In this document: in pieces, positions 6,380 to 21,265 of the stretch
Layout: every line of letters starts with the position of its first letter
Numbering within the stretch: the first letter of the stretch is position 1
DNA from: Starkeya sp. ORNL1
GTDB lineage: Bacteria > Pseudomonadota > Alphaproteobacteria > Rhizobiales > Xanthobacteraceae
Assembly (NCBI RefSeq): GCF_012971745.1
Contig: NZ_CP048834.1
Location: forward strand, 4,907,001 to 4,971,000
Direction of reading: 5' to 3'
Length of the DNA stretch: 64,000 nt
Made by a program: the position numbers and the translations under genes
Notes under the pieces: model-generated
Seen by the model: the letters and a program-made list of their open reading frames with translations, nothing else
What the model was told of the DNA's origin: nothing
The model's database searches: none

Positions 6380-7138
6380 TCACGACGCCGAATGTCCGTC
6401 GAGGTCGGGCAGGAAAATGTCCTTGATGCGCTCGTTCGCCGCCATCTTCTCGGCCGGGCCGGAGCATTGCAGCGCGCCGTGCTCCAGCGCGTACACATAG
6501 TCCGCGACCTGGAACGCCAGGTCGATATTCTGCTCGACCAGGATGATCGAGACGCCGTTCTCAGCCAGCTTGAGCACGATCTCGAAGATCTGGTGGATGA
6601 TGATCGGGGCGAGGCCGAGCGAGGGCTCGTCGAGCAGCAGCAATTCGGGATTGCCCATCAGCGCCCGGCCGATCGCCAGCATCTGCTGCTGGCCGCCCGA
6701 CAGCCGGCTGGCCGACTGGGTGCGCCGCTCGCCGAGGATCGGGAACAGCTCGAACACCTCGTCGCGCAGTTCGTGGAACGTCTTGCCGCGGCCGGCGACA
6801 TAGCCGGTGATGAGGTTCTCCTCGATCGACAGGTGCTGGAACACGCGCCGGCCTTCCGGGCAGTGGCCGAGGCCGGAGCGTGCCATCTGGTAGGGCTTCA
6901 TGCCGCCGACCGGCTGGCCCTTGAAATGGATCGAGCCGCGGGTCGGCCGGTTCAATCCGCTCAGCGTGCGCAGCAGCGTCGACTTGCCGGCGCCGTTCGG
7001 GCCGATGATGCAGACCACCTCGCCGGAAAGTACTTCAAGGCTGATGCCATGTAATACTTTCACCCTCCCGTAGCCGGACTCGATTCCGTCGACCGCGAGC
7101 AGCGGCTTCGATATCTCTGATCGCTCCTGGCTGGCCAA
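6380..7138 (-). CDS. livF: Branched-chain amino-acid type ABC transporter ATP-binding protein LivF
   Basis: Second ATPase of a Liv-type importer, 252 residues. Walker A GPNGAGKST is at about 46-54, Q-loop and signature LSGGQQQM follow, then Walker B LLLDEPSLGLAP and the switch region VEQN typical of LivF. The frame has no ATG before the domain begins. The start is a TTG at 7138 preceded by a perfect AGGAGG six bases upstream (7145-7150), which fixes it. This places the first 104 bases inside the end of livG. Confidence 0.92.
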   Translation of the reverse strand: MASQERSEISKPLLAVDGIESGYGRVKVLHGISLEVLSGEVVCIIGPNGAGKSTLLRTLSGLNRPTRGSIHFKGQPVGGMKPYQMARSGLGHCPEGRRVFQHLSIEENLITGYVAGRGKTFHELRDEVFELFPILGERRTQSASRLSGGQQQMLAIGRALMGNPELLLLDEPSLGLAPIIIHQIFEIVLKLAENGVSIILVEQNIDLAFQVADYVYALEHGALQCSGPAEKMAANERIKDIFLPDLDGHSAS

Positions 7139-7874
7139 GATAAGCCTCCTGAACTTCGATGTTCGCGCGGATTTCCGCGGCCGTGCCCTGCGCCAGCAGC
7201 GCGCCGCGGTTCATCACCAGGATCCTGTCCGAGATGGACATGATCAGCTTCATGTCATGCTCGATCAGCACCATCGCCATCTCCGGCGCGCGCAGGTCGA
7301 GAATGTATTGCTTCAGCTTCTCGGTCTCGCCGTGATTGAGCCCGGCGGCGGGCTCATCCAGCAGCAGCACGCGCGGCTCCGAGACGATGGCGCGCGCCAG
7401 CTCGACCAGCTTCTGCTGGCCATAAGCGAGGCTGCCGGCAAGCCGGCCGGCATATTGGCTGATGCCGAGCCGCCGCAGCACGGCATGGCACTTCTCGCGA
7501 CGCGCCTCCGCCGCGGCCTTGCCGGCGAGGCCGAAGGTGTCGGCGAGGAGGTGGCCGATGCTTGGTGGCACCAGCACCACTTCGAGGTTCTGCAGCACGC
7601 TCATGCCATCGAACAGCCGGATGTTCTGGTAGGTGCGGCTGAGGCCGGCATGGGCGATGCGGTGCTTGGGCAGTTGCTGCAATTCGGTGTCGTCGATCAG
7701 GATCCGCCCCGAGGTGACGCTGTAGGAGCCGGCCGCCATGTTGACGAGCGTCGACTTGCCGGCGCCGTTCGGGCCGATGATCGCGGTGATGAGCCCCGGC
7801 GCGACGTCGAACGTGACGTCGTTGATGGCGGCGATCGCGCCGAACCGCTTGGTGACGTGCTCGAACCTCAGCAT
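7035..7874 (-). CDS. livG: Branched-chain amino-acid type ABC transporter ATP-binding protein LivG
   Basis: First ATPase of the Liv importer, 279 residues. It has Walker A GPNGAGKS at about 34-41, signature LAYGQQ (LivG proteins carry this variant), Walker B VLLLDEPAAGLN and switch EHDMKL. LivG proteins usually end shortly after the VQEAYLG segment. Here about 30 extra residues follow, encoded entirely in the stretch shared with livF. The start overlaps the livM stop by one base. Substrate is set by the binding protein at 9930-11036. Confidence 0.92.
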   Translation of the reverse strand: MLRFEHVTKRFGAIAAINDVTFDVAPGLITAIIGPNGAGKSTLVNMAAGSYSVTSGRILIDDTELQQLPKHRIAHAGLSRTYQNIRLFDGMSVLQNLEVVLVPPSIGHLLADTFGLAGKAAAEARREKCHAVLRRLGISQYAGRLAGSLAYGQQKLVELARAIVSEPRVLLLDEPAAGLNHGETEKLKQYILDLRAPEMAMVLIEHDMKLIMSISDRILVMNRGALLAQGTAAEIRANIEVQEAYLGQPGAIRDIEAAARGRRNRVRLREGESITWHQP

Positions 7875-8872
7875 CAGCGCCCCCCGAGCTTGCGGACCAG
7901 CCAGCTCGGGCCGAAGTCGCGGCTGATGAGGCCGCGCGGCCGGGCGAGGATGATCATCACCAGGGCCATGCCGTAGAGCAGCAGCCGGTAGTCGGCATAG
8001 GCGCGCAGCAGTTCGGGGATGAGGATCAGCAGCGTCGCCCCGAGCAGCGCGCCGAACGGGTTGCCGAGCCCGCCCACGACGATGACCAGCACGATGACCA
8101 GCGACTCCCAGAATGTGAAGCTCTCCGGGCTGACGAAGCGCTGCATTGCCGCGAAGATCACGCCGCCGGCGCCGCCTATGGATGCGCTGAAGGCGAAGGC
8201 GGCGAGCTTCACCTTGGTGGTGTCGATGCCGCAGCCGCGCGCGGCGTCCTGGTCCTCGCGCACTGCGGCCAGCGCGGTGCCGAGTGCGCTCTCCTGCACC
8301 CGCCAGGCGAACAGGAAGACGATGACCAGCATGCCGGCGAGCAGATAGAGGAAGTCCAGCGGGGTCTCGAGCGTCCAGCCGAAGATACTGGCTTCGTCGA
8401 TGCGAGCGATGCCCTGCGGGCCGTTGGTCAGCCAGTCGAGATTGTTCATCAGCACGCGGATGATCTCGCCGAAGCCGAGCGTGACGATGGCGAGATAGTC
8501 GCCGCGCAGCCGCAGCACCGGAATGCCGAGCAATATGCCGGCGAAGCCGGCGAGCCCGGCGCCGATCAGCAGCACCAGCGCGAACGGCAGGTGGATGTCG
8601 AACTGGCCGGAGGCGAGCAGCGCATAGGTGTAGGCGCCGATGGCGTAGAAGGCGACATAGCCGAGGTCGAGCAGCCCGGCGTAGCCGACCACGATATTCA
8701 GCCCGAGGCCGAGGATGGCGTAGAGCAGGATCATGTCGAGGATGCGCAGCGGATAGGTCGGCAGGAACTGGCCGATCACCAGCGCCGCGATCGGGATCAG
8801 CAGCAGCACCAAAGCCGCGCGGCCGATTTGGGGGCGGCTTGTCGCCGCCTGCGGGTGCGCCTCAGAAGTCAC
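7874..8872 (-). CDS. livM: Branched-chain amino-acid type ABC transporter permease LivM
   Basis: Inner-membrane permease of 332 residues with many hydrophobic segments. The LivM hallmark GYAGLLDLGYVAFYAIGAY follows the second span, and GDYLAIVTLGFGEI lies near residue 140. Translation starts at GTG (8872), read through the last bases of livH, giving an 11-base overlap. It forms the channel with LivH. Confidence 0.92.
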   Translation of the reverse strand: MTSEAHPQAATSRPQIGRAALVLLLIPIAALVIGQFLPTYPLRILDMILLYAILGLGLNIVVGYAGLLDLGYVAFYAIGAYTYALLASGQFDIHLPFALVLLIGAGLAGFAGILLGIPVLRLRGDYLAIVTLGFGEIIRVLMNNLDWLTNGPQGIARIDEASIFGWTLETPLDFLYLLAGMLVIVFLFAWRVQESALGTALAAVREDQDAARGCGIDTTKVKLAAFAFSASIGGAGGVIFAAMQRFVSPESFTFWESLVIVLVIVVGGLGNPFGALLGATLLILIPELLRAYADYRLLLYGMALVMIILARPRGLISRDFGPSWLVRKLGGR

Positions 8873-9803
8873 TCTTGTACACCATGGTTTCTTCGCTGAC
8901 GTGCTCGCCGAGCAGGCCGGCCGGACGGAACAGCAGGATCAGCACCAGCACCGAGAAGGCGAAGATGTCGCGATACTCGGTGCCTATGAGCCCGCCGGTC
9001 AGCACCGGCATCCAGGCCGTGGCGAAGGTCTCGATGGCGCCGAGCAGGAAGCCGCCCAGCACCGCGCCGGGGATCGAGCCGATGCCGCCGAGGATGGCCG
9101 CGGTGAAGGCCTTCATGCCGATGACGAAACCCATGGTGAAGGTGGCGACACCGTAGAAGGACGAATAGAGGATGCCGGCGACGGCGCCGAGGCCGGGGCC
9201 GATGAAGAAGATCAGCGAGATAGCGGTGTTGGGATTGATGCCGACCAGCGAGGCGGTCTCGGCATTCTCGGCGACGGCGCGGATGCGCACGCCGAGATTG
9301 GTGCGGTTCACGAACAGCTCCAGCCCGATCATCAGCAGCACCGCCACCGCGAAGATGGTGATCTGCTTGTAGGTGACGATGGCGCCGAAGAAATCGACGG
9401 ACCCGCTCGGCAGGAAGGAGGGGTAGATCCGCGGCCGCCGGCCGGCGAGCAGCATGACGGCGTTCTGGATCACCACCGCCATGCCGAGCGCGGACAGCAT
9501 GGGCGCGAGGCGCGAGGTGCGGCGCAGCGGGCGGTAGGCGACGATCTCGATGCTGACACCAAGCAGGCCAATGGCGACGAAGGTGATGAGCCCGACAAGT
9601 ATGCCGCCGAGCGGGTGGCCGGTGACGCCGAGCGCTCCGGCGAGCGCGAGGCCGATGAAGGCGCCCGCGGTGAACAGCTCGCTATGGGCGAAATTGATGA
9701 GGCGCAGCACGCCATAGACCATGGTGTAGCCGAGCGCGATCAAGGCGTAGATCGAGCCGACGGTCAGCGCATTGATGGTCTGCTGCAATATCAGGGAGCC
9801 CAT
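8862..9803 (-). CDS. livH: Branched-chain amino-acid type ABC transporter permease LivH
   Basis: Inner-membrane permease of 313 residues. The N-terminus shows the LivH pattern GSIYALIALGYTMVYGV then LINFAHSE, and GINPNTAISL with KAFTAAILGGIGS appears later, all family signatures. About eight transmembrane segments are visible. It is separated from the upstream livJ gene by 126 bp containing a strong hairpin, while livH-livM-livG-livF are tightly overlapped. Confidence 0.93.
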   Translation of the reverse strand: MGSLILQQTINALTVGSIYALIALGYTMVYGVLRLINFAHSELFTAGAFIGLALAGALGVTGHPLGGILVGLITFVAIGLLGVSIEIVAYRPLRRTSRLAPMLSALGMAVVIQNAVMLLAGRRPRIYPSFLPSGSVDFFGAIVTYKQITIFAVAVLLMIGLELFVNRTNLGVRIRAVAENAETASLVGINPNTAISLIFFIGPGLGAVAGILYSSFYGVATFTMGFVIGMKAFTAAILGGIGSIPGAVLGGFLLGAIETFATAWMPVLTGGLIGTEYRDIFAFSVLVLILLFRPAGLLGEHVSEETMVYKSDF

Positions 9804-9929: not shown

Positions 9930-11036
9930 TCATTTCACCAGCGAGAACTTGTCGCCCTTGACCGCATAAAGGAAGAGGAAAGGCTTCTTCAGTTCGCCTT
10001 CCGGCGTGAAGGCGACATGGCCGACAATGCCGTCGAAGTCGCTCTTGGCGATCTCGGCGATGATGCCGGCGCGGGTCAGCGGGGTCGGCGCCTTCTTCAT
10101 CGCCTCGATGATGATGTTGGCCTCGACATAGCCATAGGCGGAGTAGGGGCCCGGCTCTTCGCCGAAGGCGGCCTTGTAGTCGGCGGCGAACTTCTGCAGC
10201 GCCGGCGAGGAATCATAGGGCGGGGCCTGGAAGGAGACGACTGCGCCTTCCGAGGCCGGGCCGGCGCCGGCGATGAAGTCCGGGGTGAAGGCGGAGTCGG
10301 CGGCGAAGAAGGTGCCCTTCAGCCCGAATTCGCGGGCCTGCTTCACGAACAGGCCGACCGCCGGCATGACGCCGCCGAAATAGATGACGTCGGGATTCTC
10401 GCCGCGGATGCTGGTCAGCAGCGCGCTGAAGTCGACGTCGGTCTGCGCGATGCCGGAGAACGACGTCACCTTGCCGCCGCCCTTGGTGAAGTTGTCGCGG
10501 AACACTTCGGCGACGCCCTGGCCGAAGGCCTGCTTGTCATGAATGATGGCGGCGGTCTTCGCCTTCAGCGTGGTCAGCGCATATTCGGCCGGCGCCGCGC
10601 CCTGCGAGAGGTCGTTGGCGATCGGGCGGAACAGGTTCTTGTAGCCGGACTTCGTGACCTTCGGGTTCGAGGCGTTGGTCACCTGCGGCATGCCGCAACG
10701 GTTGTAGACGTCCGACGAGGGAATGGTGACGCCGCTGTTGAAGTTGGCGACGACGCCGAGGATATCCTTGTTGTCGCAATGCTTCTGCGCGATCAGCGTG
10801 CCCTGCTTGGGGTCGCCGCCATCGTCGTCGCGCTGCAGCACGAGCTTCTGGCCCTGCACGCCGCCGGCAGCATTGGCCTGGCGGACCGCGAGTTCCATGC
10901 CGTTCTGCCAGGTGGTGCCGAACAGCGCCTCGGCATTGCTGGTGGGACCGGCTGAGCCGATGACGATGTCGGCGCGGGCGGCGCCGGTCAGCGCGGCAAG
11001 CGCTGCGGCGGCGAAGAGAAGCGATCTTGTCTTCAT
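9930..11036 (-). CDS. Branched-chain amino-acid type ABC transporter substrate-binding protein
   Basis: Periplasmic leucine-binding-protein-like receptor (Peripla_BP_6), 368 residues. It has a Sec signal peptide of about 22 residues ending AARA. Characteristic segments include NGMELAVRQANAAGG, GVVANFNSGVTIPSS, NASNPKVTKSGY, FRPIANDLSQG, and VIYFGGVMPAVGLFVKQ. LivJ-type receptors in alphaproteobacteria bind diverse amino and aromatic acids, so the ligand is uncertain. The divergent operon encodes amino/imino-acid enzymes, so an amino- or imino-acid-like ligand is a reasonable inference. It lies 79 bp downstream of a GntR gene on the same strand. Confidence 0.9.
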   Translation of the reverse strand: MKTRSLLFAAAALAALTGAARADIVIGSAGPTSNAEALFGTTWQNGMELAVRQANAAGGVQGQKLVLQRDDDGGDPKQGTLIAQKHCDNKDILGVVANFNSGVTIPSSDVYNRCGMPQVTNASNPKVTKSGYKNLFRPIANDLSQGAAPAEYALTTLKAKTAAIIHDKQAFGQGVAEVFRDNFTKGGGKVTSFSGIAQTDVDFSALLTSIRGENPDVIYFGGVMPAVGLFVKQAREFGLKGTFFAADSAFTPDFIAGAGPASEGAVVSFQAPPYDSSPALQKFAADYKAAFGEEPGPYSAYGYVEANIIIEAMKKAPTPLTRAGIIAEIAKSDFDGIVGHVAFTPEGELKKPFLFLYAVKGDKFSLVK

Positions 11037-11970: not shown

Positions 11971-12495
11971 ATGGCTGAGCAGACACAACAGGCCTCCGCG
12001 TTCGGCGAGGTTTTGATCAAGCAGCCCGGCACCGCAACGAGCTATTGGCAGCCGGTGCCTGCCAACGGCCATATCGAGGTGATCTTCGCGCCGGAATCCG
12101 TGCGCATGGAGCACCCTATCGGATTCGGCACCCAGACGGTCCCGCCCGGCGGCTATGTGCGCGAGCACGCCCATGACCGCAACGAGGAGGTGATTTTCGT
12201 CGTCACAGGCACGGGCCGTGCCGTGATCGACGGGGAGAACCATCCGATGCAGCCGGGCTCCGCCTTCTTCATCGGCAAGAACCGCCGGCACATGTTCATC
12301 AATGAAGGCAGCGAGGACATCACCTGGACCTGGCTGATCGTGCCGAACGGCCTTGAGGACTTCTTCCGCCTCATCGGCCGCCCGCGCGCCGAGGATGAGC
12401 CGACCCCGGCACCTTTCCCGCGGCCTGAGAACGTCCTGCAGATCGAGCGCGACACCGTCTTCGCCGCACAGCCGGCGGACCAGCGCAAGCCCTGA
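11971..12495 (+). CDS. Cupin-domain protein
   Basis: Single-domain cupin of 174 residues. Cupin motif 1 is visible as VREHAHDRNEEVIFVVTG (two His and a Glu as metal ligands) and motif 2 as GSAFFIGKNRRHMFIN with the second His. The family includes dioxygenases, isomerases and binding proteins, so the reaction is open. ATG 11971 with GAGG upstream is preferred to an in-frame TTG seven codons earlier. First gene of the rightward catabolic operon under the double GntR operators. Confidence 0.8.
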   Translation: MAEQTQQASAFGEVLIKQPGTATSYWQPVPANGHIEVIFAPESVRMEHPIGFGTQTVPPGGYVREHAHDRNEEVIFVVTGTGRAVIDGENHPMQPGSAFFIGKNRRHMFINEGSEDITWTWLIVPNGLEDFFRLIGRPRAEDEPTPAPFPRPENVLQIERDTVFAAQPADQRKP

Positions 12496-12538
12496 GCCGC
12501 ACAATGGGCCGGGACAGTCAGTGAATTTGAGGCACAGC

Positions 12539-13291
12539 ATGCGCTTGGCAGACAAGGTTGCGATCATCACCGGTTCGGCGGCGGGGATCGGCGCCGCAGC
12601 GGCGGAAATTTTCGTTCGCGAGGGAGCAAAAGTTCTGCTCGCCGACCGCAATGGTGAGGGCGCGGAGCAACTCGCCGCGCGGCTCGGCCCACAGGCGGCG
12701 GCGTTCCAGGTGGACGTCAGCTCCAGCGCAGAGGTCAAGGCCATGGTCGAGGCCGCGGTGGCGCGGTTCGGCCGCCTCGACATCCTGGTCAATAATGCCG
12801 GCTACGGCATTCCCGGCACCGTGGTGAACACCGATGAGGCCGACTGGGATGCGCTGATGGCGGTGAACCTCAAGGGCGTGTTCCTGTGCTGCAAGCACGC
12901 CATTCCGGTCATGGCCGGGCAGGGCGGCGGCACCATCGTCAACACCGCGTCGAATGTCGCCACCGTCGGCATCTTCGATCGCGCCGCCTATGTCGCCTCC
13001 AAGGGCGGGGTGGCGGCGCTGACCAAGGCGATGGCGCTCGACCATGCCGAGCAGAATATCCGGGTGAACTGCGTGGCGCCCGGCGTCACCTGGTCGAGCT
13101 ATTTCGAGAAGATGGTGGCCGAGCATCCCGACCCCGAGACCTTCAAGGCCAAGCTGAAGGCGCGTTCGCCGATCAATCGCTGGGCCGAGCCTATCGAGAT
13201 CGCCAACGCCATTCTCTGGCTCGCTTCCGACGAGGCTTCCTTCGCCACCGGCGCGATGTTCACCGTCGATGGCGGCATGTCGGCCTGGTGA
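12539..13291 (+). CDS. SDR family oxidoreductase
   Basis: Short-chain dehydrogenase of 250 residues. It has TGSAAGIG (residues about 11-18), an acidic residue after strand 2 (LADRNGEG) suggesting NAD(H), NNAGYG, the catalytic Ser region NTASNVAT, and the YVASK Tyr-x3-Lys pair. FTVDGGMSAW at the C-terminus is typical. Its stop overlaps the start of the NadX-like gene by one base, so the two are coupled. Substrate is unknown. Confidence 0.87.
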   Translation: MRLADKVAIITGSAAGIGAAAAEIFVREGAKVLLADRNGEGAEQLAARLGPQAAAFQVDVSSSAEVKAMVEAAVARFGRLDILVNNAGYGIPGTVVNTDEADWDALMAVNLKGVFLCCKHAIPVMAGQGGGTIVNTASNVATVGIFDRAAYVASKGGVAALTKAMALDHAEQNIRVNCVAPGVTWSSYFEKMVAEHPDPETFKAKLKARSPINRWAEPIEIANAILWLASDEASFATGAMFTVDGGMSAW

Positions 13292-14088
13292 TGGAGATGG
13301 CCGCGCACCAGCATGTCGGACTGATCGGTTACGGCGCCATCGGCCGCGACCTGCATGCGCGGCTGGCCCTTGATCCGCGATACCGCTTCACCATCCTGCT
13401 GCGCGAGGCGGCGGATGCCGTCGCCGGGCGTGAGACCACCACCGTTCGCACGCTCGACGAACTGATCGCTGCCAAGCCCGACCTCGTTGTGGAAGCCGCC
13501 GGACAGGGCGCGGTGGCCGAACTGGTCCCCGCGTTGCTGGAGGCCGGCATCAATGTGGTGGCGGTGTCGAGCGGGGCGCTGGGGGATAGCGAACTGCTCG
13601 GGCGGCTGACCCGCATCGCGCAGAAGAGTGGCGCGCGGCTTACCGTTCCGCCCGGCGCCATAGGCGGGCTGGATTATCTCGCTGCCCTGCACGGCGCGGA
13701 GGGTGCGCGCGTGCGCTACACCTCGCGCAAGCCGGTCGCCGCCTGGGCGGATGAGTTGCGCGAGATCGGGCAGGATCCCGCGGCGCTCCAGGGCGAAGTC
13801 GTGCTGTTCGAAGGCAGTCCGGCCGAGGCGGCACGGCGCTACCCGCGCAACCTCAATGCCGGCCTCACCGTGGCGCTGGCCGCGGGCCATGAGCGCACCA
13901 TTGTGCGCGTGGTCGCCGATCCCTCGGTCATGCGCAACACCCATGAGATCGCAGTCGAGAGCCCGGTCGGCGAGGCCTTCATGAGCTTCGCCAATCTGCC
14001 CTCGCTCTCCAATCCGAAGACCTCCGCACTCACCGCGCTCAGCCTCGCAGCCGTCGTGCGCCGGCATTTCGATCCCGTCATCATCTGA
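13291..14088 (+). CDS. Aspartate dehydrogenase (NadX-like)
   Basis: NAD(P)-dependent amino-acid dehydrogenase of 265 residues in the L-aspartate dehydrogenase family. The N-terminal Rossmann motif GLIGYGAIGRD is at about 10-20. The middle part SGARLTVPPGAIGGLDYL and the C-terminal domain with NLNAGLTVALA, VVADPSVMRNTHEI (conserved His) and PSLSNPKTSALTALS match aspartate dehydrogenases. These convert L-aspartate and relatives to the oxo acid and ammonia. No nadA/nadC genes are nearby, so a catabolic rather than NAD-biosynthetic role is likely. Proximity to a glutamate-mutase-like enzyme makes 3-substituted aspartates possible substrates (inference). Confidence 0.82.
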   Translation: MEMAAHQHVGLIGYGAIGRDLHARLALDPRYRFTILLREAADAVAGRETTTVRTLDELIAAKPDLVVEAAGQGAVAELVPALLEAGINVVAVSSGALGDSELLGRLTRIAQKSGARLTVPPGAIGGLDYLAALHGAEGARVRYTSRKPVAAWADELREIGQDPAALQGEVVLFEGSPAEAARRYPRNLNAGLTVALAAGHERTIVRVVADPSVMRNTHEIAVESPVGEAFMSFANLPSLSNPKTSALTALSLAAVVRRHFDPVII

Positions 14089-14104
14089 GGAAGCCGCCTG
14101 CATC

Positions 14105-15331
14105 ATGTCGCGCATTCTCGTCGTCGGAGCCGGGATCATCGGCCTGTCCTGCGCCCGCTCGCTGCTGGCGGACGGGCACGAGGTGAGCGTGCTCGACCGT
14201 GACCCGGCGGGCGACAAGGCATCGTTCGGCAATGCCGGCGGTGTCGGCGTTACCGAGATCATCCCGGCCTCGGTGCCGGGCCTCGTCTGGAAGGTGCCGC
14301 GCTGGCTGTTCGATCCGCTGGGCCCGCTCTCGCTGCGCACCGCGCATCTGCCGAAGCTCGCCCCCTGGCTGGTGCGCTTCCTGCGCTCCGGTTCGTGGCC
14401 GGATGTCGAGCGCATCGCCGGTGCGCTCGCCGGGCTGTCGGCGCGCACCTATGAGGACATGCTGCCGCTGCTGGCGGAACTCGATCTGCTGGGCGACCTG
14501 CACCAGGTCGGGGCGCTTTGGGTCTATGAGACACGCGAGGGCTTCGAGGCGGATCGGCGCTTCTATGACCTGCGCCGCCGCTACGGCCTGGTCTTCGAGG
14601 AGATGAGTGGCGCGGAGGCTCGGGAGATGGAGCCGGCGCTCAGCGATGTGGTGCGCCACGCGCTGTTCACGCCGCAATGGTCACATGTCTCCGATCCCAA
14701 GCGCATCGTCGATCGGCTGCGGGTGAACCTCGAACAGCGCGGCGTGCCGATGCTCGCCGGCGAGATGGCTGCGCTCGCGGACGGCGCCGTGGTGACGAGC
14801 GCCGGCGCCCGCCTGCCGTTCGACCATCTGGTCATCGCCGCCGGCGCCTGGTCGGGCCGGCTGGCGAAGCTGGTCGGCGACCGCGCGCTGATCGAGAGCG
14901 AGCGCGGCTACAACACCACGCTGCCGAACCCCGGCGTCTCGCTCAGCTGCGAAGTGATCTTCGCCGAGCGCCAGTTCGTGGCGACGCCGCTCGACATGGG
15001 CCTGCGCATAGGTGGTGCCGCCGAGTTCGCCGGACTGGAAGCAAAGCCGAACTATGAGCGTAGCAAAGCTCTGGCCGAACTAGCCCGGCGCTATCTGCCC
15101 GGCTTGAGCATTGCTGGCGGCACGCGCTGGATGGGGCATCGTCCGACCACGCCGGACTCGCTTCCCGTCATCGGCCGCTCGCCGCGGCGCGGCAATGTCT
15201 TCTATGCCTTCGGCCACAGCCACACCGGCCTCACCTTCGGGCCGACCACGGGGCGGCTGATTGGCGAACTCGTCGCCGGGCGCACGCCTTGCGTCGATGT
15301 CGCGCCGTTCGGCATCGAGCGGTTCCAATAG
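14105..15331 (+). CDS. FAD-dependent D-amino-acid dehydrogenase/oxidase (DadA family)
   Basis: FAD oxidoreductase of the DAO superfamily, 408 residues. The dinucleotide-binding motif VGAGIIG is at 7-13, followed by an SFGNAGGV segment typical of DadA. C-terminal RWMGHRPTTPDSLPVIG and FAFGHSHTGLTFGP-like stretches close the FAD site. DadA-like enzymes oxidise D-amino acids or D-imino acids such as cis-4-hydroxy-D-proline, passing electrons to the respiratory chain. The following gene is a proline-racemase-family epimerase, the classic partner, so an L-to-D epimerisation then oxidation is likely. Confidence 0.87.
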   Translation: MSRILVVGAGIIGLSCARSLLADGHEVSVLDRDPAGDKASFGNAGGVGVTEIIPASVPGLVWKVPRWLFDPLGPLSLRTAHLPKLAPWLVRFLRSGSWPDVERIAGALAGLSARTYEDMLPLLAELDLLGDLHQVGALWVYETREGFEADRRFYDLRRRYGLVFEEMSGAEAREMEPALSDVVRHALFTPQWSHVSDPKRIVDRLRVNLEQRGVPMLAGEMAALADGAVVTSAGARLPFDHLVIAAGAWSGRLAKLVGDRALIESERGYNTTLPNPGVSLSCEVIFAERQFVATPLDMGLRIGGAAEFAGLEAKPNYERSKALAELARRYLPGLSIAGGTRWMGHRPTTPDSLPVIGRSPRRGNVFYAFGHSHTGLTFGPTTGRLIGELVAGRTPCVDVAPFGIERFQ

Positions 15332-15349
15332 ACAATGCAGGACATCGCC

Positions 15350-16351
15350 ATGAACCCGCATACCTTCCTCTGCATCGACGCCCATACCTGCGGCAATCCG
15401 GTGCGCGTGGTCGCCGGCGGCGCGCCGCAACTGCCGAATGTCAGCATGGCGGAGAAGCGGCAGATCTTCCTGCGCGACCATGACTGGGTGCGCAAGGCGC
15501 TGATGTTCGAGCCGCGCGGCCATGACGTGATGTCCGGCTCGATCCTCTATCCGCCCTCGCGCGAGGATTGCGAGCTCGGCGTGCTGTTCATCGAGACTTC
15601 CGGGTGCCTGCCGATGTGCGGCCACGGCACCATCGGCACGGTGACCGTCGCGCTGGAACAGGGCTTCGTCGTGCCGCGCACTGAAGGGCGCCTCGCGCTT
15701 GAAGTGCCGGCCGGCAAGGTCGAGGTCGAGTATCAGCGCAATGGCCGCTTCGTCGACCAGGTGCGGCTGTTCAATATTCCGAGCTATCTGCACGCCGCCG
15801 ACGTGGTCGTGGACGTGCCGGGCTTCGGCGAGCTGGTGGTCGATGTCTCCTATGGCGGCAATTACTACGCCATTGTCGAGCCGCAGAAGAACTGGGCCGG
15901 CCTCGACGCGACGAGCGCCGACGAGATCCTGAAATGGAGCCCGATCGTGCGCGCGGCGGTGCAGAAGGCGGTAGCGCCGGTGCATCCCGAGGATGCCCGT
16001 ATCAATGGCGTCAGCCATGTGATGTGGGCCGACGGGCCGAAGCATCCGGAGGCGCATGCCCGCAACGCCGTGTTCTATGGCGCCAAGGGCATCGACCGCT
16101 CGCCCTGCGGCACCGGCTCGTCCTCGCGCATGGCGCAGCGAGTCGCCAAGGGCTTGCTCAAGGTCGGTGACGACTTCGTGCATGAGAGCATCATCGGCAC
16201 GCTGTTCCATTGCCGGGTCGAGGGCACCGCCACGGTCGGCAACTATTCCGCTATCCTGCCGAGCATCGGCGGCTGGGCACGCGTGATCGGCAACAACACC
16301 ATCTATGTCGACGAGCGCGACCCGCTCGCCTTCGGCTTCCAGCTGGCGTGA
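15350..16351 (+). CDS. Proline racemase family epimerase (4-hydroxyproline 2-epimerase-like)
   Basis: Cofactor-independent epimerase of 333 residues. Both catalytic cysteines are present: Cys90 in MCGHGTIG and Cys253 in RSPCGTGSSSRMA. The two-Cys state is associated with racemase/epimerase rather than 3-hydroxyproline dehydratase activity. Other family segments are CIDAHTCGNPVRVV near the start and GIDRSPCGTG near the end. ATG 15350 (MNPHTF) was chosen; ATG 15335 is also open. It works on an imino or amino acid and feeds the adjacent DadA-like oxidase. A divergent paralogue is the last gene of the operon. Confidence 0.88.
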   Translation: MNPHTFLCIDAHTCGNPVRVVAGGAPQLPNVSMAEKRQIFLRDHDWVRKALMFEPRGHDVMSGSILYPPSREDCELGVLFIETSGCLPMCGHGTIGTVTVALEQGFVVPRTEGRLALEVPAGKVEVEYQRNGRFVDQVRLFNIPSYLHAADVVVDVPGFGELVVDVSYGGNYYAIVEPQKNWAGLDATSADEILKWSPIVRAAVQKAVAPVHPEDARINGVSHVMWADGPKHPEAHARNAVFYGAKGIDRSPCGTGSSSRMAQRVAKGLLKVGDDFVHESIIGTLFHCRVEGTATVGNYSAILPSIGGWARVIGNNTIYVDERDPLAFGFQLA

Positions 16352-16358
16352 GGCGGCG

Positions 16359-16673
16359 ATGATCCTCGAGGAACGCGACTACCACATCTTTCCCGGCCGG
16401 CTGGGGGATTTCCTCAAGGCCTATGAGACGCTCGGGCTCGACATCCAGAGGCGCTTTCTCGGCGAGTTCATCGGCCATTTCGTCACCGAGACCGGCGAGC
16501 TCAACCATGTGGTCGCACTCTGGCGCTATGAGAGCATGGCGGACCGCGAGGCGCGCCGGGCCCTCATGCTGGCGCACGAGCCCTGGCAGGACTACCTCGC
16601 CGCCATCAAGGGCATGATCCAGAGCCAGCAGACGCGCCTGCTCACCCCGACCTCGCTCTCGCCGATGCGCTGA
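16359..16673 (+). CDS. NIPSNAP family protein
   Basis: Small protein of 104 residues with the ferredoxin-like alpha/beta-barrel pattern of NIPSNAP/Dabb proteins: LEERDYHIFPGRLGDFLKAYE at the start, then GEFIGHFVTETGELNHVVALWRYESM, the typical family core. No catalytic residues are known for the family. It sits 7 bp after the epimerase and 9 bp before the mutase, so it is part of the pathway. It may act as an isomerase or accessory protein. Confidence 0.82.
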   Translation: MILEERDYHIFPGRLGDFLKAYETLGLDIQRRFLGEFIGHFVTETGELNHVVALWRYESMADREARRALMLAHEPWQDYLAAIKGMIQSQQTRLLTPTSLSPMR

Positions 16674-16682
16674 GGAGCCGAC

Positions 16683-18449
16683 GTGGTCCAGAAGCTGCCC
16701 AGCCGCGACCAGCTGATACCGCCGAACCTTCGGCCGGGACGCGAACTGCTGGATGAAGGGCGCGCCCTGGCGAAGGAGTGGCAGGTCGGGCGCAACGCTT
16801 TCCTCGATGCCAAGGGCGTTGCCTGCGAGGCCGATTACAAGCGTGCCGTGGCGGCTGAGGGCCGCATCATGCAGCATGCCCATATCGGCTTCCGCAGCGT
16901 GGACCGCACCATCGCCGCGATCGCCGAGGTGCACGGCACGTGCGCCAGGCGCGGCGTCGGCGTCGACCGCTTCGGCATCACGCTCGACTGGTCGATGGGC
17001 TATCCCCCGAGCATGCGGCAGGGCAGCCGGCGCGGCACCGGCATCGTGCTGGACGGGCCGGAGGATTTCGCGCGCATCACCAATGCCGCCCCCGCTGCTG
17101 CCCATTTCGGCGACTTCATGCTCGGCCTGCCCGGCGCGCTGGACAACACCAAGGGCGCGCTGGCGGCGGGCGCGACCGCGATCGGCAATCTCGGCCAGTA
17201 TTTCACCTTCCGCATGCCGGACTGGGACGACGACGCCGCCACCACGGAGGCGACCGTCACTGCGCTCGGCCTCATCGCCGCGCAGCCGGTCGAGGTGCTG
17301 GTGCATTCCAATCTCGATGACGGCTTCGCCGGCCTGCTCGCCGACATGAGCTCGACGCTCGGCATGGTGCTGATCGAGAAATACATCGTGGAGACGCTGA
17401 TCGGCGCGCGCGCCTCGCACTGCTTCGGCCACCATTTCACCTCGCCGATGGCCCGCATGGCGTTCCACGAGGCGCTGACCATGGTGACGGACACGCCCGG
17501 CACCATGATCTTCGGCAATACGGTCAGCTACAAATCCACACCCGCCGGCAATTATGCGAGCCTCGCCTCGTACCTGCAGGCCGATATCTGGGCGCTCTCG
17601 CGCGTCAATTCAGGCCATGCCGTCAATCCGGTGCCGGTCACCGAGAATGAGCGCATTCCCGACGTCGACGAGATCATCGACGCGCAGACCTTCGCCTCGC
17701 GGCTTGCAATGCACGCGCAGGATTCGCAGGCGCTGCTCGACTTCACGCAGGTCGACCGAATGGCGGATCGCCTGGTCGCCGGCGCGCACCTTTTTGCCGA
17801 CCGCGCGCTCAAGGGGCTCGAAGAGATCGGCATCGACATGCGCGATCCCGCCGAGCTGCTGCTGGCGCTGCGCCGCATCGGCCCTAAGCGCATCGAGGCC
17901 GCCTTCGGCGCCGGTGAGCCGGATGCCGCGGCGTGGGGCGGACGCAAGGCCATCGCCCTCGCGGAATGGGTCGAGGAACTGGAGCATGCTGCGCACGGCT
18001 GGGCGGGCACCGTGCCTACCGAGACCGCGCGGCGCATCGCGGCCCGCGGACTGACAGCCTGCGTCGCTTCCAGCGACGTCCACGAGCACGGCAAGAACCT
18101 GATCGAGCGCACGCTGGCGCAGCTTGGCGTCGCCATCGTCGATGGCGGCACCTCGGTCGATGCCGATGATCTGGTCACTTCCGCGATCGCCGCGCGGGCC
18201 GATGTGATCGCCATCAGCACCTATAATGGCATTGCGCTGCGCTATGCGCGCGAAGTGCGCGATGGTCTCACCAAGGCCGGCTCTGCCATTCCAGTCTGCA
18301 TCGGCGGGCGCCTCAACCAGATCCCGGACGATTCGAATTCCGGGCTGCCGGTCAATGTCAGCGCCGAGATCCGCGCCATAGGCGTCACGCCGTGCGACAC
18401 GCCGGAAGGGCTGATCGCGCTGCTCGCAGAACTGGCGGCAACCCGATGA
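16683..18449 (+). CDS. Cobalamin-dependent mutase with fused B12-binding domain (glutamate-mutase epsilon-like)
   Basis: A 588-residue two-domain protein. The C-terminal domain (about 455-588) has the cobalamin-binding signature D465-x-H467-x-x-G470 (DVHEHG), then STYNG and GGRLN loops, as in base-off/His-on B12 domains. The N-terminal part (about 60-350) looks like the TIM barrel of the glutamate mutase epsilon chain: RFGITLDWSMGYP, a GNLGQ turn, GHHFTSPMARMAFHEA and VPVTENERIPDVDEIIDA. Such enzymes perform radical carbon-skeleton or aminomutase rearrangements with adenosylcobalamin. Glutamate mutase normally has separate S and E chains, so the single-chain form is unusual. It sits between NIPSNAP and hydrolase genes in the imino-acid operon; substrate not known. 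Confidence 0.72.
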   Translation: MVQKLPSRDQLIPPNLRPGRELLDEGRALAKEWQVGRNAFLDAKGVACEADYKRAVAAEGRIMQHAHIGFRSVDRTIAAIAEVHGTCARRGVGVDRFGITLDWSMGYPPSMRQGSRRGTGIVLDGPEDFARITNAAPAAAHFGDFMLGLPGALDNTKGALAAGATAIGNLGQYFTFRMPDWDDDAATTEATVTALGLIAAQPVEVLVHSNLDDGFAGLLADMSSTLGMVLIEKYIVETLIGARASHCFGHHFTSPMARMAFHEALTMVTDTPGTMIFGNTVSYKSTPAGNYASLASYLQADIWALSRVNSGHAVNPVPVTENERIPDVDEIIDAQTFASRLAMHAQDSQALLDFTQVDRMADRLVAGAHLFADRALKGLEEIGIDMRDPAELLLALRRIGPKRIEAAFGAGEPDAAAWGGRKAIALAEWVEELEHAAHGWAGTVPTETARRIAARGLTACVASSDVHEHGKNLIERTLAQLGVAIVDGGTSVDADDLVTSAIAARADVIAISTYNGIALRYAREVRDGLTKAGSAIPVCIGGRLNQIPDDSNSGLPVNVSAEIRAIGVTPCDTPEGLIALLAELAATR

Positions 18450-18462
18450 AGCGGAGACCCTG

Positions 18463-19284
18463 ATGGTAACGCTCAACGCCTCGGATGGCTGCCGGGTGCA
18501 CTACGAGACCGAAGGCGAAGGCGCGCCGCTGGTGCTGATCCCCGGGCTCGGCGGCGATGGCCGGTTCTGGGCCGCTGCGGCGGCGCACCTGCGTGACCGT
18601 TTCCGGCTGATCATCGTCGATCATCGCGGCGCCGGCCGCAGCGACCGGCCGATCGGGCCCTACAGCATCGGCCGGATCGCCCGGGACATCATCGAGATCC
18701 TCGACGCGGAAGGGATCGGGCGGGCGCATTTCGTCGGCCATTCCACCGGCGGCACGGTGGTGCAGACGCTCGCGCTCGACGCGCCCGACCGTGTCGAGCG
18801 CATTGTCATCAGCGGCAGCTGGGCAGCACCGGATGCGCGCTTTCGGCTGCTGTTCCTGGCGCGCCTCGCACTGCTGGAACGCAACCAGCCGGAGATCTAC
18901 CAGGCCTTCACCCATGTGCTCGGCTACTCCGGCGAATGGCTCTCGGCGCACGAAGCCGAACTCGCCGCCGCGGTGGAGGGCGCACCCGTGGCGCTGGCGC
19001 CGCTGGAGGTTACCGCCGCGCGCATCCGCATGCTGCTCGATTTCGACCGCTCGGCCGAGCTTGCGCGCATCGCCGCCCCGACGCTGGTGATCGGCGCCCG
19101 CGAGGACGAGATGGTGCCGCTTTCCCATTCCGAGCAGATCACCGGACTGATCCCTTCGGCGCGGCTGGAGGTCGTCTCCGGCGCCCATTTCTTCCCCCGG
19201 ACCGAGCCCGCCGACTACGCCGTCCGGATACGAGACTTCCTCTTTGCCGATCCCTGCACACCTTCATCCCTCGCGAGGACCTAG
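18463..19284 (+). CDS. Alpha/beta-fold hydrolase
   Basis: Hydrolase of 273 residues. The oxyanion-hole region VLIPGLGGDGR, nucleophile elbow GHSTGG (Ser94), acid Asp215 in REDEMVP and His242 in GAHFFP form a full triad. The fold and length resemble RutD, 3-oxoadipate enol-lactonase and related ester or C-C hydrolases. It starts 13 bp after the mutase and ends 2 bp before the DapA-like gene. It probably cleaves an intermediate formed by the mutase branch; substrate unknown. Confidence 0.85.
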   Translation: MVTLNASDGCRVHYETEGEGAPLVLIPGLGGDGRFWAAAAAHLRDRFRLIIVDHRGAGRSDRPIGPYSIGRIARDIIEILDAEGIGRAHFVGHSTGGTVVQTLALDAPDRVERIVISGSWAAPDARFRLLFLARLALLERNQPEIYQAFTHVLGYSGEWLSAHEAELAAAVEGAPVALAPLEVTAARIRMLLDFDRSAELARIAAPTLVIGAREDEMVPLSHSEQITGLIPSARLEVVSGAHFFPRTEPADYAVRIRDFLFADPCTPSSLART

Positions 19285-19286
19285 CC

Positions 19287-20201
19287 ATGACCGTCTGGAC
19301 CGGAGTTTTCCCCGCCGTCACCACCAAGCTGCGCGAGGATCAGAGCGTCGACCTCGCCGCCACCCAGGCCAGCCTCGACCGGCTGATCAATAATGGCGTC
19401 TCTGGCGTCATCGTGCTGCCGATGCTCGGCGAGAACGCCTCGCTGACCGCGGCCGAGCGCGAGGCGGTGATCCGCGCGGCGAAGGAAGCCGTTGCCGGCC
19501 GGGTGCCGCTGCTCTCCGGCCTCGCCCATGTCGCCACCACTGAGGCCGTCGCCTCCGCCCGACACTATGAGAAGCTCGGCGCCGAGGGCCTGATGGCGTT
19601 CCCCTCCATCGCCTACAAGAGCGATCCGCGCGAGACCGCCGCCTGGTACAAGGCGCTGGGCCGCGGCTGCGGCCTGCCGATCATGATCTACAACAACCCG
19701 ATCGCCTACGGCGTCGACGTCACCCCGGCGATCCTCAACGAGTTGGCGGACACCCCGAGCATCGTCTGCGTCAAGGAAGAGACCGGCGACATCCGCCGCG
19801 TCACCGACATCTACAACGAATGCGGCGACCGCTTCTCGGTGTTCTGCGGCGTCGACGACCTGCTGCTGGAGAGCATGGCGCTCGGCGTCACCGGCTGGGT
19901 GTCGGGCATGACCAATGCCTGGACCGCGGAATGCGTGCAGCTGTTCAATCTGTGCAAGGCCGGCAAGTACGACGAGGCGCGTGCGCTGTACCGCATCCTC
20001 ACCCCGGCCTTCCATCTCGATACCGACGTCAAGCTGGTGCAGTACATCAAGCTGGCCGAGCAGGTGGTCTATGGCGCCCCGGAATGGGTGCGCGAGCCGC
20101 GCCTGCCGCTGATCGGCACCGAGCGCGCCCGCGTGCTCAGCGTCATCGAGGCGACGGTGACCGCACTCCAGGCGAAGAGCGCGCAGCGCTCCGCCGCCTG
20201 A
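19287..20201 (+). CDS. Dihydrodipicolinate synthase (DapA) family lyase/dehydratase
   Basis: Class I aldolase-fold enzyme of 304 residues. The Schiff-base lysine is Lys163 in CVKEETGD and the conserved tyrosine is Tyr135 in MIYNNP. The GENASLTAAER segment matches the family GE-x-x-LT motif. Members act as pyruvate aldolases or as dehydratase/deaminases, including the pyrroline-hydroxycarboxylate deaminase of hydroxyproline catabolism. With a proline-racemase-family epimerase and a DadA oxidase nearby, that deaminase is the obvious comparison. However, no 2-oxoglutarate-semialdehyde dehydrogenase is seen here. Confidence 0.87.
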   Translation: MTVWTGVFPAVTTKLREDQSVDLAATQASLDRLINNGVSGVIVLPMLGENASLTAAEREAVIRAAKEAVAGRVPLLSGLAHVATTEAVASARHYEKLGAEGLMAFPSIAYKSDPRETAAWYKALGRGCGLPIMIYNNPIAYGVDVTPAILNELADTPSIVCVKEETGDIRRVTDIYNECGDRFSVFCGVDDLLLESMALGVTGWVSGMTNAWTAECVQLFNLCKAGKYDEARALYRILTPAFHLDTDVKLVQYIKLAEQVVYGAPEWVREPRLPLIGTERARVLSVIEATVTALQAKSAQRSAA

Positions 20202-20215
20202 GCGAGGGAACGACG

Positions 20216-21265
20216 ATGCGATTCAGCCGCATGATCACCGTCGTCGGCGCGCACGCTGCCGGCGAGCTCAACGAGGTCATAACCGGCGGCGTCCTCGACG
20301 TCCCCGGCAAGACCATGTTCGAGAAGATGCAATATGTGCAGACCCATCGCGACGAACTGCGCAAGTTCCTGCTGAACGAGCCGCGCGGCCGCGTCTCGCA
20401 ATGCGTCAACCTGGTGCTGCCGCCGACCACGCCGGAGGCCGACGCCGGCTTCGTCATCATCGAGTCCGACTATTATGTGCCGATGTCCGGCACCAACACG
20501 ATCTGTACGGTCACCGTCCTGCTGGAAACCGGCATGATTCCGATGCAGGAGCCGGTCACGCATCTGGTCATGGAGGCGCCCGCAGGCCTGGTGAAGGTCT
20601 CCGCCGAGTGCCGCAACGGCAAGTGCGTGAACGTGACGTTCGACAATGTGCCGGGCTTCGTCTTCACGCTCGACGGCAAGGTCGACGTGCCGGGCCTCGG
20701 CACCATCAATGTCGATGTCGCCTATGGCGGCATGATCTACTGCCTGGTCGATGCCGAGAGCCTAGGCTTCAAGCTCGAACTGCGCGAGGCGGCCCAGCTT
20801 GTCGAGGTCGGCGAGCGCATCAAGAAGGCGGCGGCCGAGCAAATTCCGGCGGTGCATCCGGAGAATCCGGAGATCCACACCATCAACCAGACGCTGTTCG
20901 CCGGACCGCTCATCGATACCGCCGGGGGCAAGCGCTCGAAGAACACGGTGATCGTCTCGCCCGGCCGGCACGACCGCTCGCCCTGCGGCACCGGCACCTG
21001 CGCCCGCATGTCCGTGCTGCATGCCCGCGGGCAGCTCAAGGTCGGCGAGAGCTTCGTGCATGAATCGCTGATCGGCACCGAGTTCATCGGCCATCTGCGT
21101 GGCACCACCGAGCTCGGCGGCCGGCCTGCCGTGCTGCCCACCATCACCGGACCGGCCTGGATCACCGCCTTCCACCAATATGTGCTCGATCCCACCGATC
21201 CGTTCCCGAACGGCTATCGGCTCGGCGACACCTGGCCGGGCTATACCGGAGAGCAGCCGATCTGA
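20216..21265 (+). CDS. Divergent proline racemase family protein (Ser/Cys active site)
   Basis: Second proline-racemase-family protein of the operon, 349 residues. The first active-site position carries Ser91 in PMSGTNTIC instead of Cys-Gly-His, while Cys257 in RSPCGTGTCARM is kept. An N-terminal GELNEVITGG replaces the usual TxGxPxRVV element. Related Ser/Cys proteins exist in the superfamily, with epimerase or hydroxyproline dehydratase activities reported, so the reaction cannot be read from the residues. It is about 16 residues longer than the first paralogue. It ends the operon; 278 bp without a gene follow. Confidence 0.8.
   Translation: MRFSRMITVVGAHAAGELNEVITGGVLDVPGKTMFEKMQYVQTHRDELRKFLLNEPRGRVSQCVNLVLPPTTPEADAGFVIIESDYYVPMSGTNTICTVTVLLETGMIPMQEPVTHLVMEAPAGLVKVSAECRNGKCVNVTFDNVPGFVFTLDGKVDVPGLGTINVDVAYGGMIYCLVDAESLGFKLELREAAQLVEVGERIKKAAAEQIPAVHPENPEIHTINQTLFAGPLIDTAGGKRSKNTVIVSPGRHDRSPCGTGTCARMSVLHARGQLKVGESFVHESLIGTEFIGHLRGTTELGGRPAVLPTITGPAWITAFHQYVLDPTDPFPNGYRLGDTWPGYTGEQPI

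What the first reader, a model, noticed from the sequence alone, without database searches (positions are those of the whole stretch)
11971..21265. Uncharacterised ten-gene catabolic operon built around a single-chain B12-dependent mutase
Seen: cupin, SDR, NadX, DadA, two proline-racemase-family proteins, NIPSNAP, B12 mutase, alpha/beta hydrolase and DapA lyase are tightly spaced on one strand opposite a Liv-type transporter. Known: epimerase-DadA-DapA is the hydroxyproline catabolic core, but that pathway needs no B12 enzyme, NadX or hydrolase, and its semialdehyde dehydrogenase is missing here. Inference: the operon degrades an unusual imino or amino acid, with carbon-skeleton rearrangement to a branched aspartate-like product that NadX deaminates.
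Basis: partly seen in the sequence, partly recalled or inferred. Interest (0 to 1): 0.8.

Follow-up and report, generated by a model that had tools for sequence, protein, structure and literature searches.

The report
Uncharacterised B12 mutase in catabolic operon
This soil-type bacterium carries a tightly packed ten-gene operon, shared with relatives, that seems built to break down an unusual proline-like amino acid with the help of a vitamin-B12 enzyme whose reaction is not assigned in the databases searched.

The parts
11971..12495 (+). small cupin (174 aa); in 43 of 61 relative loci
   Evidence: PF07883 61.7 bits; presence count
12539..13291 (+). SDR oxidoreductase (250 aa)
   Evidence: NF004791 352.8 over cut-off 312; in 30 of 61 relative loci, among them 15 of 21 of the rhizobial layout, there 55-71% identical
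13291..14088 (+). NadX, L-aspartate-dehydrogenase family (265 aa)
   Evidence: PF01958 94 bits, PF03447 62.1; NF009828 195.5 over 177; PDB 2dc1 E 3.7e-36 with the NxHEI and NPKTS stretches kept
14105..15331 (+). DadA/DAAO-superfamily FAD oxidoreductase (408 aa)
   Evidence: PF01266 204.7 bits; 41% identical to the DadA of the genome's own hydroxyproline cluster
15335..16351 (+). PrA1, proline-racemase superfamily, 4-hydroxyproline-epimerase type, dyad Cys95/Cys258
   Evidence: NF010578 574.3 over 376; dyad Cys/Cys in 16 of 16 orthologues of at least 70% identity among the 80 loci
16359..16673 (+). NIPSNAP-domain protein (104 aa)
   Evidence: PF07978 89.1 bits; in 37 of 61 relative loci
16683..18449 (+). 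single-chain B12 protein: glutamate-mutase-fold barrel plus C-terminal B12-binding domain (588 aa, GTG start)
18463..19284 (+). alpha/beta hydrolase (273 aa), RutD/enol-lactonase-like
   Evidence: PF00561 115.7 bits; TIGR03611 173 below cut-off 238.5; in 37 of 61 loci
19287..20201 (+). DHDPS/DapA-family lyase (304 aa), dispensable
   Evidence: PF00701 173.5 bits; present in 12 of 15 same-layout loci; 42% to the DapA of L144
20216..21265 (+). PrA2, proline-racemase superfamily, dyad Ser91/Cys257
   Evidence: PF05544 427 bits; NF047722 435.3 below 550; Ser/Cys in 16 of 16 orthologues of at least 70% identity
11116..11832 (-). GntR/FCD-type regulator, divergent
   Evidence: TIGR03338 93.3 bits, below cut-off 271.5; 82-97% orthologues at the same place in 12 congener loci
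9930..11036 (-). LivK-type substrate-binding protein
   Evidence: NF011933 240.6 bits, below cut-off 477; at least 84% in the same 13 of 30 congeners that hold the mutase
8862..9803 (-). LivH-type permease
   Evidence: synteny in same-layout relatives, 77-95%; name by resemblance
7874..8872 (-). LivM-type permease
   Evidence: synteny, 73-91%; name by resemblance
7035..7874 (-). LivG-type ATPase
   Evidence: synteny, 68-89%; name by resemblance
6380..7138 (-). LivF-type ATPase
   Evidence: synteny, 68-90% where inside the locus; name by resemblance

Best explanation
The operon is a catabolic unit for a substituted or hydroxylated proline-like imino acid (or a compound that releases one), imported by the divergent Liv ABC transporter and controlled by the GntR protein. 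Shown: gene content, compactness, conservation as a unit, and the glutamate-mutase-type fold plus B12 motif of the 588-aa protein. Inferred: PrA1 and PrA2 act on C2 of the imino acid (epimerisation, for PrA2 possibly dehydration) and DadA oxidises the D-form to a cyclic imine, as in hydroxyproline catabolism. The B12 protein is an adenosylcobalamin-dependent radical mutase that rearranges the carbon skeleton of an amino-acid intermediate. Its substrate is not glutamate. NadX (ProC-like in some sister clusters) then acts on the amino or imino group next to the mutase step; SDR, cupin, NIPSNAP and hydrolase finish the conversion. DapA is an optional ring-opening or aldol branch.
Confidence: 0.5

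Rival explanations
1. It is a second, auxiliary hydroxyproline operon: PrA1, DadA and DapA run the known route for one hydroxyproline isomer, and the mutase, NadX, cupin and hydrolase are a separate unit that happens to share the promoter.
For: PrA1 over the 4HypE cut-off; 59/41/42% identity of PrA1/DadA/DapA to the ordinary cluster; 4 of the 13 congeners with the operon show no racemase-family gene pair of the ordinary kind within 3 kb (by eye).
Against: The other genes stay with DadA, PrA1 and PrA2 in 15 of 15 loci while DapA, needed for the known route, is lost in 3 of 15; an ordinary hydroxyproline gene pair is already there in 24 of 30 congeners (by eye).
Confidence: 0.17
2. The protein is a single-chain glutamate (methylaspartate) mutase: glutamate becomes 3-methylaspartate, which NadX deaminates.
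For: Nearest fold is glutamate mutase epsilon; NadX belongs to the aspartate-dehydrogenase family.
Against: No PF06368 match; the column of GlmE Arg66 holds His or Gln (31 and 3 of 34 rows; equivalence from non-significant profile alignments); L069 has a genuine GlmE/GlmS pair besides this mutase.
Confidence: 0.12
3. It is not a skeleton mutase but a PLP-dependent aminomutase relative or a corrinoid methyltransferase.
Confidence: 0.1
4. The mutase core (mutase, NadX or ProC-like, cupin, SDR, NIPSNAP, hydrolase) degrades one part of a larger N-heterocyclic compound, and the proline-type module of this window or the Aco/KstD/McbB-like module of rhizobia takes the other part.
For: The core is shared by layouts A and B, whose other enzyme modules differ; a McbB-fold protein in 25 of 61 loci.
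Against: No link from sequence to any such compound; the McbB likeness is by fold only (no sequence match to McbB).
Confidence: 0.11

Closest known systems
Glutamate mutase (GlmE + GlmS; PDB 1cb7, 1i9c)
   Different: one chain with the B12 domain at the C-terminus, 11% identity, no PF06368 match, Arg66 column His/Gln, no GlmL gene among the ten
Methylmalonyl-CoA mutase family
   Same: barrel followed by B12 domain on one chain; best Foldseek E-values
   Different: 588 aa against about 720; no methylmalonyl-CoA mutase Pfam match at E 1e-3; no CoA enzyme named among the ten genes
2-methyleneglutarate mutase (recalled; only its name was seen in a search listing)
   Same: single-chain AdoCbl skeleton mutase of similar size (recalled)
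   Different: not compared: no sequence of it was at hand
trans-4-hydroxyproline catabolic operon (4HypE, DAAO, DHDPS, aldehyde dehydrogenase; PMC4113996, passages read)
   Same: PrA1, DadA and DapA belong to the same superfamilies and lie in one operon
   Different: adds mutase, NadX, cupin, SDR, NIPSNAP, hydrolase; no aldehyde dehydrogenase in the window; coexists with an ordinary cluster (L144)

Membership tests
Glutamate mutase | Pfam PF06368 (Met_asp_mut_E) match | tested here: not met
   only PF02310 found at E 1e-3; no PF06368 match in the own genome
Glutamate mutase | barrel fold of the epsilon subunit | tested here: met
   [not shown]
Glutamate mutase | arginine claw R66, R100, R149 (PMC10947579, passages) | tested here: inconclusive
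   R66 column His/Gln in 34 rows, but profile alignments are not significant and R100/R149 could not be placed
Glutamate mutase | separate sigma and epsilon subunits | tested here: not met
   one 588-aa chain; weak feature, since fused forms with the B12 domain in front exist (L089)
Base-off/His-on B12 enzymes | DxHxxG motif | tested here: met
   D465, H467, G470 and S512 in 34 of 34 rows
PLP-dependent B12 aminomutases | PLP-binding lysine in the B12 domain (recalled) | tested here: not met
   no invariant lysine there in 34 rows
Acyl-CoA mutases | Pfam methylmalonyl-CoA mutase domain | tested here: not met
   no such match at E 1e-3
AdoCbl-dependent mutases | AdoCbl homolysis and skeleton rearrangement | not testable with these tools
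   needs purified protein
NadX (aspartate dehydrogenase) | PF01958 and PF03447, curated subfamily cut-off | tested here: met
   PF01958 94 bits, PF03447 62.1 bits; NF009828 (subfamily) 195.5 over 177, but below the cut-offs of the other seven aspartate-dehydrogenase models listed; activity not tested
4-hydroxyproline operon | 4HypE, DAAO, DHDPS superfamily genes together | tested here: met
4-hydroxyproline operon | alpha-ketoglutarate semialdehyde dehydrogenase in the operon | tested here: not met
   no PF00171 match in the window; weak, since the 19 kb of L144 have none either

The most novel reading that the evidence does not exclude
The 588-aa family is a new reaction class of coenzyme-B12 enzyme that rearranges a cyclic imino acid or other N-heterocycle (ring contraction, expansion or skeleton shift). 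Alphaproteobacteria couple it to alternative modules: proline-type epimerases and oxidase here, or an acetoin-dehydrogenase-like complex plus a Pictet-Spenglerase-fold protein in rhizobia and rhodobacters. That would be an unrecognised catabolic pathway for plant or algal nitrogen heterocycles.
Probability: 0.15. Interest if true: 0.88.

Novelty: new variant of a known kind. Interest (0 to 1): 0.62.

Why it matters
Few AdoCbl skeleton mutases are known and each marks a distinct metabolic route (recalled). Here an unnamed family (the best 120 database clusters are all at least 62% identical) sits in compact, conserved catabolic operons of culturable soil bacteria, so substrate discovery by growth tests and deletion is practical. 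Source names such as "methylmalonyl-CoA mutase cobalamin-binding subunit" or "cobalamin-dependent protein" hide it.

Tried and rejected
Led nowhere: profile alignment of the barrel with GlmE (only the B12 domain, or non-significant), so the claw residues could not be compared safely. Papers: ten searches. Those that paired hydroxyproline or 4-hydroxyproline epimerase with a cobalamin mutase or cobalamin (25, 40), NadX with cupin and gene cluster (75), AdoCbl mutase with genome neighbourhood (85), methylaspartate mutase with Rhizobiales (94) and cobalamin mutase with Ancylobacter (101) found no paper; (hydroxyproline and methylaspartate) found seven, none on catabolism by title. Only open-licence PMC is held, so print elsewhere is not excluded. 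Regulatory signals: no Rfam match at gathering score, promoter-like sites at chance.

Considered and dropped: ordinary hydroxyproline operon as the sole function (L144); redundant glutamate mutase (L069); B12 methyltransferase (though MtaC ties for the B12 domain alone); L087 plasmid hit (39% over 37% of the query, inside a gene named DUF1349 domain), not used. PrA2 as a pure epimerase because of its Ser/Cys dyad was also dropped: the genome's own protein over the t3HypD cut-off has the same dyad.

Rows dropped and limits: one search kept 80 of 88 confirmed loci; counts use 61 of 80 (at least 8 kb on both sides), with identity thresholds that I set, and layout A is defined by DadA, PrA1 and PrA2, so their presence there is by construction. 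One search used 80 mutase rows with at least 480 aligned residues (duplicate plasmid locus L085 left out) and the quick method; its root is the midpoint. One search scored at most 3 candidates per genome and listed a part; of its 319 of 398 genomes with a match, the listed ones other than four match the C-terminal, B12-domain end only. One search reports 1554 proteins at E 0.001 or better but lists 120, and the tail may hold other B12 proteins. Of the 12 congener loci read, 11 are also among the loci, so those counts are not independent. "c54" in L022/L024 is only 30% like the rhizobial carnitine-dehydrogenase-like protein and was not counted. The chance figure for the 13-of-30 agreement ignores shared ancestry.
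Full report
OBSERVATION. The window lies at 4907001-4971000 of a single-contig 6.29-Mb genome. The ten genes are as described, in one direction, with gaps of -1 to 43 bp, and a GntR gene plus a five-gene Liv-type ABC transporter run away from them. Family searches confirm the names with two refinements. PrA1 is a 4-hydroxyproline-epimerase type above its curated cut-off. PrA2 is nearest trans-3-hydroxyproline dehydratase but below the cut-off, with a Ser91/Cys257 dyad instead of Cys/Cys. The dyads are fixed in 16 of 16 orthologues each. In PMC4113996 (passages read) Ser/Cys is the dyad of a 4-hydroxyproline epimerase and Ser/Thr that of a dehydratase; but the protein of this genome that passes the dehydratase cut-off (L144) also has Ser/Cys, so PrA2's activity stays open.

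CONSERVED AS A UNIT. In the 30 congeners (own genome included), mutase (at least 77%), NadX (at least 58%), PrA2 (at least 84%) and LivK (at least 84%) are found in the same 13 genomes; a 14th (G422) has a divergent cluster of the rhizobial layout, and 16 have none at these levels (best NadX 37%, LivK 37%). In the 12 congener loci read besides the window, nine genes (all but DapA) are present in 12 of 12 and DapA in 11 of 12; 11 of these 12 loci are the same as loci. The calculation for chance agreement ignores shared ancestry and is only a guide.

NOT THE ORDINARY HYDROXYPROLINE ROUTE. Elsewhere in the same genome, L144 holds a GntR-like gene, an ABC transporter (by resemblance), DapA, DadA, 4HypE (607 bits, cut-off 376), cis-3-hydroxyproline dehydratase (736, cut-off 500) and trans-3-hydroxyproline dehydratase (654, cut-off 550). 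PrA1, DadA, DapA and PrA2 of the window are 59, 41, 42 and 48% identical to these. A racemase-family gene pair of this kind (45-51% and 34-37% identity to PrA2, within 3 kb) is in 24 of 30 congeners: 9 of the 13 with the operon and 15 of the 17 others (counted by eye). No PF00171 aldehyde dehydrogenase lies in the 19 kb of L144 or in the window; 23 matches lie elsewhere in the genome, so the absence from the operon is not telling.

RELATIVES. Of 80 loci, 61 have at least 8 kb on both sides. Layout A, as in the window: 15, of which 10 are congeners and 5 lie outside the genus (Brucellaceae, Beijerinckiaceae, Lichenihabitantaceae). Layout B, rhizobia: 21, with KstD-like FAD dehydrogenase, cupin, NadX, hydrolase, mutase, an acetoin/pyruvate-dehydrogenase-like complex, NIPSNAP, a McbB-fold protein, a carnitine-dehydrogenase-like protein, a ProC-like protein and LivK. 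Layout D, Bosea and kin: 6, with ProC-like protein, glyoxalase-like protein, oligopeptide-type binding protein, cupin, NadX and mutase. C 4, E (PhyH dioxygenase and ProC-like) 4, an intermediate form 1, other 10. NadX or ProC-like: 57 of 61; both: 28. A quick, midpoint-rooted tree of 80 mutases joins A and D (SH-aLRT 97, with one Acetobacter copy) apart from B, C and E, and the Rhodospirillales copies are the most distant. Among the most divergent copies, L078, L162 and plasmid copy L086 sit by ProC-like genes, which suggests, but does not show, that an imine- or amino-acid-handling partner is the old one.

TWO TELLING LOCI. L069 (Mesorhizobium MAG, mutase 59%) has DapA, DadA, aldehyde dehydrogenase, racemase-family gene and SDR before the mutase, and a transporter of the polar-amino-acid type (by resemblance), GlmS, a GlmL-family protein, GlmE (TIGR01503 706 bits, cut-off 390) and the start of methylaspartate ammonia-lyase, cut by the locus end, after it. 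A genuine glutamate mutase beside it argues that this mutase does something else. L086 (Phyllobacterium plasmid, mutase about 52%) also has it beside DapA, FAD oxidoreductase, aldehyde dehydrogenase and a racemase-family gene. With about 0.02 racemase-family genes expected per 21.7 kb, one such case in the 46 loci without layout A is what chance gives, so I treat both as suggestive only.

MECHANISM. Shown: gene content, conservation, fold and B12 motif. Inferred from family knowledge: epimerisation at C2, FAD oxidation to a cyclic imine, radical rearrangement by the mutase, NAD-linked oxidation at an amino group by NadX. Unknown: the substrate and the order of steps; DapA is optional. Against my reading: the mutase core occurs without any proline-type gene in layouts B to E, so the proline-type module might feed the core, drain it, or act on another part of the molecule.

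VERDICT. New variant of a known kind: an unassigned family of the glutamate-mutase-type B12 enzymes in a new operon context.

Noticed in passing
[not shown]
   Followed up: partly
L069:17831-21702: Mesorhizobium MAG locus with GlmS, GlmL family, GlmE and methylaspartate ammonia-lyase start next to the new mutase and a hydroxyproline-type gene set.
   Followed up: partly
window:5319-6340 (-): A 61-aa tautomerase (PF01361) and an SDR follow livF on the Liv strand and may belong to the same regulon.
   Followed up: partly
G408:C1:1644576-1644837: Two short pieces about 80% identical to PrA2 in a congener without the operon look like a remnant of its loss.
   Followed up: no
L161:9144-12758: A distant mutase copy lies beside an AsnC-type regulator (by resemblance) and a PALP-family enzyme that looks like ACC deaminase (family, the finer name recalled).
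   Followed up: no
L163:8743-11173 (own genome, 4.29 Mb): The genome's second NadX (36%) lies with a DHDPS-family protein, a protein that looks like 3-hydroxyanthranilate dioxygenase (recalled) and its own Liv transporter.
   Followed up: partly
L146:7149-13520 (own genome, 5.65 Mb): Another racemase-family gene (about 36% to PrA1) lies beside two aldehyde dehydrogenases.
   Followed up: no
window:21544-26327 (+): Downstream genes look like the PrkA-YeaH-SpoVR stress module (by resemblance, recalled); separate unit, 278 bp away.
   Followed up: no
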